A stretch of 64,000 nucleotides of DNA from Bacteroidota bacterium (GTDB lineage Bacteria; Bacteroidota; Bacteroidia; CAILMK01; JACPUW01), in the NCBI GenBank assembly GCA_016192035.1, contig JACPUW010000007.1:62001-126000 (forward strand), in the 5' to 3' direction. A program made the position numbers and the translations under genes. Positions 6,125-8,888 of this stretch are shown here, in pieces (positions within the stretch are counted from its first letter, which is position 1; each line of letters opens with the position of its first letter). The notes under the pieces were generated by a model that was not told the origin of the DNA, did not search any database, and worked only from the letters and a program-made list of their open reading frames with translations.

Positions 6125-6604
6125 ATGGGAAGGGCAATGGCCAAACTCAAATCGATTATTGTCCAGGAAATGCGGCGGGGCACTTCTGTGCATAGCCTAT
6201 CTAGGGCCATTGCTTTGGGCATCCTTCTCGGCCTTTTTCCGGTACTGGGGGTTACCACCCTATTCACCTTGCTGCTGGGTAGGTGGCTGGGGCTCAACAT
6301 TCCGGCCATGATGGTGGCCAACTATGCCGTGGCCCCCGTGCAGATAGCCCTTATTTACGTACTTATCAAATCGGGTGAATTCCTCTTTGCCATAGACAGC
6401 GGGCTGGACTATGCCTATTTTAAGGAACTCACATCACATAGCTACCGGGAAACCATGGAGAGGTTGTGGCTGAGTATATTGGCATCTATAGCGGCCTGGG
6501 TGCCCTTGGCAACTATTCTTTATTACCCCTTGTATTTCATGTCGCGTGTGCTCATTGGTCGTTTTTACCGGGGCAGAAAAAATGACATCAATGTGCATGC
6601 ATAG
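6125..6604 (+). CDS. DUF2062 membrane protein
   Basis: A 159-residue inner-membrane protein of the DUF2062 family. The family signature follows a basic N-terminus: SRAIALGILLGLFPVLGVTT, then a second hydrophobic segment rich in small residues and a third near residues 120-145 (LWLSILASIAAWVPLATILY). DUF2062 proteins are often found beside or fused to glycosyltransferases or acyltransferases of envelope synthesis, but their activity is not established and no such partner is adjacent here. A second possible ATG is four codons in. Its last 17 bp overlap the 3' end of the convergent sugar-kinase gene. Confidence 0.85.
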   Translation: MGRAMAKLKSIIVQEMRRGTSVHSLSRAIALGILLGLFPVLGVTTLFTLLLGRWLGLNIPAMMVANYAVAPVQIALIYVLIKSGEFLFAIDSGLDYAYFKELTSHSYRETMERLWLSILASIAAWVPLATILYYPLYFMSRVLIGRFYRGRKNDINVHA

Positions 6605-7442
6605 GAATGCCGTGGTACTGAGCCAGCCCCTCTATGGGGCGCTGCATGATGCGGCCCACATGTAGTCGGTGGCTTTTGGCCGCTTGGCGCAGGGTATCTT
6701 CAAATACATGGGCCACTGAACCTACAAAATGCACCGGCAGGTCGCGGTAGCCCTTGTACCGCCACACATGCACGTCAATAAAGCGCGAAAACCCCATCCT
6801 AATCATATCCTGTACGTAATCATCGGCCCTAAATTGGCCTAGGAACAACATGAAGGAGGCCAGATACACATTGGCGCCCGGCATGGTATATACCCGGGCT
6901 ATCACTTCATCCTTGTCTATGCCGGGGTAGCAGGCCAAGAACGCTTTCTCTAGGTGCAGGGGCAACTGCCGGTAGAGCCAACGAGAGAGGAGCAATTTTC
7001 CGAAAAATGATCCACTCCCTTCATCCCCAAGTATATATCCCAAGGCTGGCGTTTCTTGGATTAGGGACTTTCCGTCCCACATGGCGCAGTTGGCGCCCGT
7101 GCCCAGTATGCAGGCTATTCCGGGCAGGCCTTGGCAGGTGGCATATACCGCCCCATCCAGGTCATGCGACACGGAGATGTGGGCCTCGGCAAATATTTTG
7201 GACAGGCCAATTTTAACCTTATCCTGTAAGCTGGCGGTGCTGCAACTGGCCCCATAGAAAAAGACCTGGTGCACTTCTCGGCCGATATTGGCAAACAAAT
7301 CATTGGTTAACAGGTCATTGGAAATTTCATCGGGAGTGAGAAAAAGCGGGTTATACCCTCTGGTATGGGTGTGGACGATTTGATTTCCATCGAAGAGTAA
7401 CCAATCGCATTTACTCGAACCGCCGTCGGCTATAGCTATCAT
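6588..7442 (-). CDS. BadF/BadG-type ATPase, probable N-acetylglucosamine kinase
   Basis: A 284-residue member of the ASKHA (hexokinase/actin) fold, BadF/BadG/BcrA/BcrD group. Visible motifs: the phosphate-1 loop ADGGSSKCDW at residues 5-14, the central CILGTGANCAMWDG (phosphate-2 region) and GDEGSGSFFGK. In Bacteroidota this length and motif set usually belongs to proteins annotated as N-acetylglucosamine kinase, acting in cell-wall amino-sugar recycling; the sugar substrate is inferred from family. It is transcribed alone, with a 180-bp gap upstream that holds a candidate small RNA on the opposite strand. Convergent 17-bp overlap with the DUF2062 gene. Confidence 0.85.
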   Translation of the reverse strand: MIAIADGGSSKCDWLLFDGNQIVHTHTRGYNPLFLTPDEISNDLLTNDLFANIGREVHQVFFYGASCSTASLQDKVKIGLSKIFAEAHISVSHDLDGAVYATCQGLPGIACILGTGANCAMWDGKSLIQETPALGYILGDEGSGSFFGKLLLSRWLYRQLPLHLEKAFLACYPGIDKDEVIARVYTMPGANVYLASFMLFLGQFRADDYVQDMIRMGFSRFIDVHVWRYKGYRDLPVHFVGSVAHVFEDTLRQAAKSHRLHVGRIMQRPIEGLAQYHGIPMHAH

Positions 7443-7503
7443 GTCTTACATCATTTATCGGGGCTTACCCATGGCTGGGTGTCCATAGGCACAAAGGAAA
7501 GGG

Positions 7504-7624
7504 TCAATATAAATTTTTTGGCAAAGCGGTATCACACATAAATTTTTCCCTAATATTGAATTGCCGTAGCAGGCAATAGATGTGGACAATCGGGCAAGCC
7601 CGGCCTTTGGCCGGGCTTTCTTTT
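7504..7624 (+). ncRNA. Candidate small RNA ending at a strong intrinsic terminator
   Basis: The gap between the sugar-kinase start and the aspartate-kinase stop can fold on the + strand into three stems: TCAATAT (7504-7510) with ATATTGA (7553-7559), whose interior also has AAATTT/AAATTT; ATTGCC (7560-7565) with GGCAAT (7572-7577); and the terminator at 7596-7618 with a U-rich tail. Both flanking genes lie on the - strand, so no known gene needs a + terminator here. The 5' end is unknown. I cannot assign it to a known RNA family such as 6S. Confidence 0.35.
7596..7624 (+). terminator. Intrinsic terminator
   Basis: Perfect 10-bp stem AAGCCCGGCC-TTT-GGCCGGGCTT followed by TCTTTT on the + strand. 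On the - strand the tract after the hairpin is GCCCGATT, without a T run, so orientation is +. The T tract overlaps the lysC stop codon. Confidence 0.7.
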
Positions 7625-8888
7625 AGTGGGACTTGGTGAGGTACTGTGCTACGTTGCCGGTTTTTTGTTCCAGCACTATCTCTTTGTCTTGCAGTACTTT
7701 TTGGGTATAAGCGGGGTCGGCATTGCGGGTGGTGTACAGGGTGAGCCCATCGGTATGGTCCACCAGGTACTCGCTGTCCAGGTCGGCCAAAAGTGCCGAT
7801 AGTTTGCGCGCATCGCAATCGGTCACCAGCTCAAACCGCATGGCAGAGTTGCGCATCAGATTGATTTTGAGCCTATTTTCGGCAATTGATTGGAAAATGC
7901 GGCTCAGGTTGGATTCGGCGATAAAAGAGAAGTTGGCAGAGGCAATGCGTATCAAGCATTGGCGGTCCTTCACTATGGCCACCGGGATTTCCGTTTGTGC
8001 GGCCACCCCATCGGCTATGCGGGTGCCTGGCAGGGTAGGATCTACAAAAGACCGCACATGTAGCGGAATATGCCGGTTTTGCAGGGGCTGCATGGTTTTG
8101 GGGTGCAACACACTTGCACCGTAGTAGCTCATTTCTACGGCATCGGTATAAGAGAGCTCTTGAAATTTGACCGTATTGGCAAATCGCTTGGGGTCTGCAT
8201 TGAGTATGCCCGGAACGTCTTTCCAAATGCATAGTTCGCTGGCTTGCAGTGCCCAAGCAAAAATAGCGGCGCTAAAATCACTTCCCTCGCGGCCCAGTGT
8301 AGTGGTATGTCCCTGGCGGTTTTTTCCTATAAAGCCCTGTGTTACCAGGGGGCCTTCGCCGAGCATTTGTGGTATTTTTCGCTGCACCAATGATTCGGTT
8401 AGGGCGAAATCCACTGCCGCTTCGCGGTAATTGTCGTTGGTAATGATAAAATTGCGGGCATCAAACCACTTGGCCGGAATGCCTACCGACTGTAGGTAGG
8501 TGGCTATAATCTTGGTGCTGAATATCTCGCCAAAGGCCACTACTTGGTCATACAAGAAATCGTAATTGCCTTTTTCACCCAATTCGAAAAACCATTCAAA
8601 TTGCAGGAAGAGGTCTTCAAGCTGGTGCAGGGCGGCAGGGTCGTTGCCCTTGTAAAGCTCTTGCAATATATTGAAATGAAACGACTTAAGTTTATCGATT
8701 TCAGTTCTATAGACCATATCTCCGTCTATGTAGTGGGCCAGTATGGCCTCTAAGGCATTGGTTGTTTTGCCCATGGCCGATACCACCACCAGCAACTGTT
8801 CTTGGCCTTCTGCGCCAATGATCTTGGCCACATTGCGTATGGCTTCTGCATCCTTTATGGAGGCGCCGCCAAATTTAAAAACTTTCAT
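7623..8888 (-). CDS. lysC: Aspartate kinase
   Basis: A 421-residue monofunctional aspartokinase, phosphorylating aspartate in the first step of the Lys/Thr/Met/diaminopimelate pathway. The amino-acid kinase domain starts with VFKFGGASIKDA (the KFGG nucleotide/substrate loop, residues about 5-8), includes VVVSAMGKTTNAL, and has GREGSDFSAAIFAWAL around residue 200. The C-terminal ~120 residues are ACT-like (VAIVKDRQCLIRIAS, then LVTDCDARKLSALLADLD), probably for feedback control by an end-product amino acid. It follows the GNAT gene with a 1-bp gap, so the two form an operon. Length fits the single-function class; no homoserine dehydrogenase domain is fused. Confidence 0.95.
   Translation of the reverse strand: MKVFKFGGASIKDAEAIRNVAKIIGAEGQEQLLVVVSAMGKTTNALEAILAHYIDGDMVYRTEIDKLKSFHFNILQELYKGNDPAALHQLEDLFLQFEWFFELGEKGNYDFLYDQVVAFGEIFSTKIIATYLQSVGIPAKWFDARNFIITNDNYREAAVDFALTESLVQRKIPQMLGEGPLVTQGFIGKNRQGHTTTLGREGSDFSAAIFAWALQASELCIWKDVPGILNADPKRFANTVKFQELSYTDAVEMSYYGASVLHPKTMQPLQNRHIPLHVRSFVDPTLPGTRIADGVAAQTEIPVAIVKDRQCLIRIASANFSFIAESNLSRIFQSIAENRLKINLMRNSAMRFELVTDCDARKLSALLADLDSEYLVDHTDGLTLYTTRNADPAYTQKVLQDKEIVLEQKTGNVAQYLTKSH

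What the first reader, a model, noticed from the sequence alone, without database searches (positions are those of the whole stretch)
7504..7624. Candidate small RNA opposite two - strand genes
A textbook + strand terminator (10-bp GC stem with U tail) lies where no + gene ends. Upstream on the same strand are two more stems within 100 bp. The transcript would end at the lysC stop codon, possibly giving antisense overlap with the lysC 3' end.
Basis: seen in the sequence. Interest (0 to 1): 0.5.

Follow-up and report, generated by a model that had tools for sequence, protein, structure and literature searches.

The report
Orphan antisense-facing terminator beside lysC
A strong transcription stop signal sits right behind the lysC gene but faces the opposite way, probably ending a short or stray antisense transcript; it is a modest and largely ordinary feature of a Bacteroidota genome.

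Summary
The main observation holds. A 10-bp, 8-GC stem (7596-7618) with tail TCTTTTA reads as an intrinsic terminator on + only. It lies between two - strand genes, 4 nt past the lysC stop, and is beyond chance: 0 of 2000 shuffles of the gap. The "two more stems" are weak: one (7560-7577) is there but ordinary, the other not significant. A dedicated small RNA is not established: no Rfam family above threshold, no counterpart of the gap in the relatives searched (mainly the terminator recurs), a candidate + promoter no better than background, and no expression data here. In about 1 Mb of this genome wrong-way terminators are rare: 3 credible cases against 33 sense-oriented tails. All three hug a stop codon (4-7 nt), whereas the 15 sense-tailed hairpins behind protein genes in co-directional gaps lie 14-44 nt away. 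Best reading: a genuine + terminator that stops antisense transcription at the edge of lysC. The transcript may be short (about 70 nt) and begin in the gap, or may be read-through from DUF2062 (+, 6125-6604), which has no + terminator candidate before 7596. Overlap with the lysC gene would be about 0-5 nt, so antisense control inside lysC is unlikely.

The parts
7596..7625 (+). intrinsic terminator: 10-bp stem 7596-7618, T-rich tail 7619-7624 that overlaps the lysC stop codon
   Evidence: the same kind of hairpin stands behind genes in other genomes
7560..7577 (+). upstream 6-bp stem-loop; would be the 5' stem of a short + transcript; ordinary in strength
7517..7546 (+). candidate + promoter TTTG-N18-TAAATTTT (one mismatch to TAnnTTTG); not better than background
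7492..7526 (-). candidate promoter of the kinase, TTTG-N22-TTCCTTTG (one mismatch), back to back with the + candidate; the stretch CTTTGTGCCTATG is shared with the kinase leader of G001
6588..7442 (-). amino-sugar-kinase-like gene
7623..8888 (-). lysC, aspartate kinase
6125..6604 (+). DUF2062 gene, overlaps the kinase 3' end by 17 nt; possible source of a read-through transcript

Best explanation
The hairpin is a working intrinsic terminator on the + strand that stops antisense transcription at the 3' edge of lysC. The most likely supply is a short + transcript (about 70 nt, roughly 7553-7624) begun in the lysC-kinase gap, back to back with the kinase promoter, with no conserved role of its own. 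Shown: the hairpin with its tail, its orientation, its rarity and its position. Inferred: that RNA polymerase reaches it on +, where that transcript starts, and that it has no trans-acting role.
For: Stem and tail beyond chance and T-run on + only. Near-identical hairpins in this and other genomes stand behind a gene on the same strand as the T-run in 8 of 10 loci read. In about 1 Mb, 33 sense tails against 4 wrong-way-only hairpins, of which 3 are credible. The 4-nt distance to the lysC stop is closer than any of the 15 sense-tailed hairpins behind protein genes in co-directional gaps (14-44 nt), and a terminating ribosome would cover it (recalled knowledge), so a sense terminator for lysC is unlikely. 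A TTTG-N18-TAAATTTT candidate lies about 70 nt upstream of the end. Antisense start sites are common in Bacteroides (24% of TSSs, PMC7366714, passage).
Against: The + promoter candidate misses the conserved G and 31% of coding windows score as well. The upstream stem is ordinary. No conservation could be shown. Over all gap types 4 of 33 sense distances are also below 14 nt (-2, 7, 10, 11; the 7 and 11 are behind tRNA genes), so closeness alone does not exclude a sense role. At C7:32894, one of the two sister cases, the next gene starts 12 nt away, which leaves no room for a start in the gap.
Confidence: 0.4

Rival explanations
1. Read-through: the terminator ends the mRNA of DUF2062 (+, 6125-6604), which runs on antisense through the whole kinase gene and stops before lysC.
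For: DUF2062 overlaps the kinase 3' end by 17 nt and no + terminator candidate is listed between 4700 and 7596. In Flavobacterium psychrophilum antisense RNAs come mostly from imperfect termination and from non-canonical starts (PMC9723704, passage).
Against: Of 108 directions at 54 tight convergent pairs in about 1 Mb, only this one has a wrong-way terminator in the next gap, so it is not the usual solution. At C29:236127 no gene on the strand of the T-run lies within 6 kb upstream.
Confidence: 0.25
2. Sense element: the hairpin belongs to the lysC mRNA as a 3' end stabiliser or a decayed terminator, and the T-run on + is just the complement of an A-rich stretch after the stop codon.
For: It lies 4 nt behind the lysC stop; 28 of the intergenic hairpins in the survey have no tail on either side; at L019 a related hairpin 26 nt behind a gene also lacks a strong tail.
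Against: A-tracts at that place are rare (15 of 337 genes), yet 3 of the 5 hairpins 0-12 nt behind protein genes have one (a comparison made after seeing the cases). Sense-tailed hairpins in such gaps lie 14-44 nt away.
Confidence: 0.16
3. Dedicated small regulatory RNA of about 70-120 nt that acts in trans.
For: Terminator plus upstream stem-loop, 7553-7624 folds at z -3.07 (mostly the terminator). In B. thetaiotaomicron 27 of 49 high-confidence intergenic sRNAs are strain-specific, so lack of conservation is no refutation (PMC7366714, passage).
Against: No Rfam match, no relative found apart from the terminator, weak promoter, ordinary stem.
Confidence: 0.12
4. Relic: lysC once faced a convergent + gene with a shared terminator; a rearrangement replaced that gene by the kinase and the terminator stayed.
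For: Neighbours behind lysC differ between relatives: an opposite-strand ORF in G002, a same-strand one in G001; the kinase sits elsewhere in both.
Against: No + reading frame longer than 20 aa is left in the gap; 4 nt is unlike the usual spacing.
Confidence: 0.07

Closest known systems
Rho-independent (intrinsic) terminators of Bacteroidota genes
   Same: GC stem, 3-nt loop, T-run; near-identical hairpins stand behind genes in other genomes
   Different: No + gene ends next to it; it faces the 3' end of lysC
High-confidence intergenic sRNAs of Bacteroides thetaiotaomicron (PMC7366714, passages)
   Same: Short intergenic stretch with terminator and a possible start
   Different: No transcript, no mapped start, promoter candidate weak
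Antisense RNAs from imperfect termination in Flavobacterium psychrophilum (PMC9723704, passages)
   Same: A + gene without its own terminator lies upstream, overlapping a - gene
   Different: Here only the place where such a transcript would stop is seen, not the transcript
Bidirectional promoters of prokaryotes (PMC12825309, PMC10268837; starts of abstracts in the search listing)
   Same: Back-to-back promoter candidates in the gap
   Different: The two -7 candidates are about 40 bp apart, not one pseudo-symmetrical site, and neither is a full match

Membership tests
Intrinsic terminator | Stable GC-rich stem followed by a T-run | tested here: met
Intrinsic terminator | Terminates transcription in the cell | not testable with these tools
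   no RNA data
Intergenic small RNA | Discrete short transcript with its own start | not testable with these tools
   no RNA data; promoter candidate inconclusive
Intergenic small RNA | Known RNA family or covarying structure in relatives | tested here: inconclusive
   No Rfam family above threshold; no homologous gap found, so covariation could not be counted
Antisense RNA to the lysC gene | Substantial overlap with the coding sequence | tested here: not met
   Stem ends 7618, lysC ends 7623; predicted overlap 0-5 nt (inference)
Sense terminator of lysC | T-run behind the stem on the gene strand | tested here: not met
   TTGCCCGAT, 3 T of 9
Terminator of a + strand read-through mRNA | Upstream + gene with no other terminator between | tested here: met
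   DUF2062 ends 6604; no + candidate up to 7596; actual read-through not testable

The most novel reading that the evidence does not exclude
This genome carries a small class of 'guard' terminators placed 4-7 nt behind stop codons and facing backwards, with the T-run overlapping or abutting the stop codon, that keep antisense transcription out of the gene without touching its own sense transcription.
Probability: 0.15. Interest if true: 0.5.

Novelty: new member of a known kind. Interest (0 to 1): 0.2.

Why it matters
Backward-facing terminators at gene ends would point to selection against antisense transcription, whose cost in bacteria is debated (recalled). One case without RNA data does not settle that; three cases in about 1 Mb make it checkable with 3'-end sequencing. 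If the terminator only ends a stray transcript, it is ordinary.

Tried and rejected
Rfam: at gathering thresholds only two tRNAs in the window; at a permissive threshold 12 weak matches in 7300-7800, all far below their family cut-offs and mostly on the terminator. Homologous gap: in G001 and G002, the nearest relatives held, the kinase is not behind lysC and no such hairpin follows lysC by eye. DNA search of 40 and of 395 genomes (the second drawn from the class, own genome included; one search scored at most 2 candidates per genome): apart from the own locus, 2 further places and 8 were outside the own genome; 1 and 6 of these cover the terminator. L003, L059 and L061 match elsewhere in short stretches and were not followed up.

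Promoter: exact TAnnTTTG is enriched upstream of genes (1.38 per kb against 0.29 in shuffles), but the one-mismatch form hardly is (7.87 against 6.71 per kb), and the gap has only one-mismatch sites. An EM model started from the known consensus drifted towards TTTGCC-like words and separated upstream from coding DNA poorly (median best scores 11.0 against 8.6-8.9); inconclusive. Strand asymmetry of the upstream stem looked supportive but 7.5% of windows do as well.

Wrong-way candidates that fell away: C25:1307 is the terminator of a tRNA-Val gene; C25:78435 has a T-run inside a TATTTTTG -7-like box. L058 could not be read because the locus is cut at a contig edge and my coordinates did not fit; dropped. 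Thresholds: keep stems of at least 7 pairs and 5 GC pairs without bulges; one search starts from 4 GC pairs, so its picks differ slightly (14 sense-tailed hairpins at 13-60 nt there, 15 at 14-44 nt). Gene calls in the survey come from a longest-ORF rule (at least 85 aa) plus ARAGORN tRNAs, so some neighbours may be wrong.

Full report
Observation. It is the only stem of that strength in the 64-kb window; 30 shuffled windows gave a mean of 0.23 such stems and none with a tail, and 2000 shuffles of the gap gave none. The flanking genes are both on -: a gene like amino-sugar kinases of known structure, 6588-7442 (no Pfam match), and an aspartate kinase, 7623-8888. On - the stem lacks a T-run (TTGCCCGAT). 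Of the 'two more stems', one is present at 7560-7577 but of a strength and strand difference seen in 7.5% of 2742 intergenic windows; the gap without the terminator does not fold better than shuffles (z -0.92).

How unusual is it? I surveyed 994,586 bases of the own genome with a longest-ORF gene model plus tRNAs. With stems of at least 7 pairs and 5 G-C pairs and at least 6 T in 9, one search counts 33 sense-oriented tails, 4 hairpins with a wrong-way tail only, 4 wrong-way sides of hairpins that have tails on both sides, 1 edge case and 28 hairpins without a tail. One of the 4 is a promoter-like T-run (C25:78435). The other three, this one, C29:236127 and C7:32894, stand 4, 7 and 7 nt behind the stop codon of a gene in a co-directional gap, with an A-tract on the gene side. 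Of the 5 hairpins that stand at most 12 nt behind a protein gene in such gaps, 3 have the A-tract, against 15 of 337 genes in general and 8 of 221 before co-directional neighbours; this comparison was made after seeing the cases. The 15 sense-tailed hairpins behind protein genes in co-directional gaps lie 14-44 nt away; the only two closer ones (7 and 11 nt) follow tRNA genes. Over all gap types 4 of 33 sense distances are below 14 nt, so spacing is a tendency, not a rule. In 800 kb of four other genomes (203 co-directional gaps against 235 here) no hairpin with a wrong-way tail only was seen at 5 or more G-C pairs, and one at 4 G-C pairs in G009; 3 of 235 against 0 of 203 is not a clear difference.

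Conservation. The second copy in the own genome (C31:126162) and 7 of the 10 places in other genomes found cover the terminator only. Of ten loci with such hairpins that I tried to read (some from the pattern search), eight have a gene on the strand of the T-run ending 14-31 nt before the match, L019 has its near gene on the other strand, and L058 could not be read. So the sequence is a standard terminator of the class. In the nearest relatives held the kinase is not next to lysC, so the gap has no counterpart and the compensation test cannot be done. Rfam gives nothing above threshold in the gap.

Source of a + transcript. (1) A start in the gap: TTTG-N18-TAAATTTT at 7517-7546 resembles the consensus TTTG / TAnnTTTG quoted in PMC7366714 (passages) but misses the final G, and 31% of coding windows score as well. 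It would give a transcript of about 7553-7624. (2) Read-through from DUF2062 (+, 6125-6604): no + terminator candidate is listed between 4700 and 7596, but of 108 directions at 54 tight convergent pairs (of 119 convergent pairs) only this one has a wrong-way terminator in the next gap. In F. psychrophilum antisense RNAs come mostly from imperfect termination and non-canonical initiation (PMC9723704, passages). The two sister cases do not decide: at C7:32894 the next gene starts 12 nt away, at C29:236127 the nearest 6 kb hold no gene on the strand of the T-run.

Judgement. A real + terminator is likely. A dedicated small RNA is possible but unsupported. The predicted 3' end overlaps lysC by 0-5 nt, so control by pairing inside the gene is unlikely; pairing with a lysC 3' UTR, if lysC runs on, is not excluded. 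The most economical reading is a stop that ends a short or stray antisense transcript at the lysC border. Papers were seen as search listings and passages only. The ribosome-footprint argument is recalled knowledge.

Noticed in passing
G000:C29:236127-236151 and G000:C7:32894-32922 (outside the window): Two more strong hairpins 7 nt behind a stop codon with the T-run facing back into the gene.
   Followed up: partly
6125-7442: DUF2062 (+) and the kinase (-) overlap by 17 nt at their 3' ends with no terminator candidate between on +; in about 1 Mb, 54 of 119 convergent pairs are closer than 25 nt.
   Followed up: partly
6588-7442: The kinase follows an aldehyde-dehydrogenase-like gene in G002 and, by eye from its last codons, in G001; the own genome has only relatives of that gene at 23-31% identity, so the kinase moved or the partner was lost.
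   Followed up: partly
G000:C25:1307-1329: Strong terminator in a divergent gap belongs to a tRNA-Val gene.
   Followed up: yes
6588-7442 and L015, L016: G001 and G002 contigs have the lengths of WGNN01000099.1 (isolate RI_201) and JAGQWA010000397.1 (Bacteroidetes bacterium HKST-UBA117), which suggests the relatives' identity.
   Followed up: no
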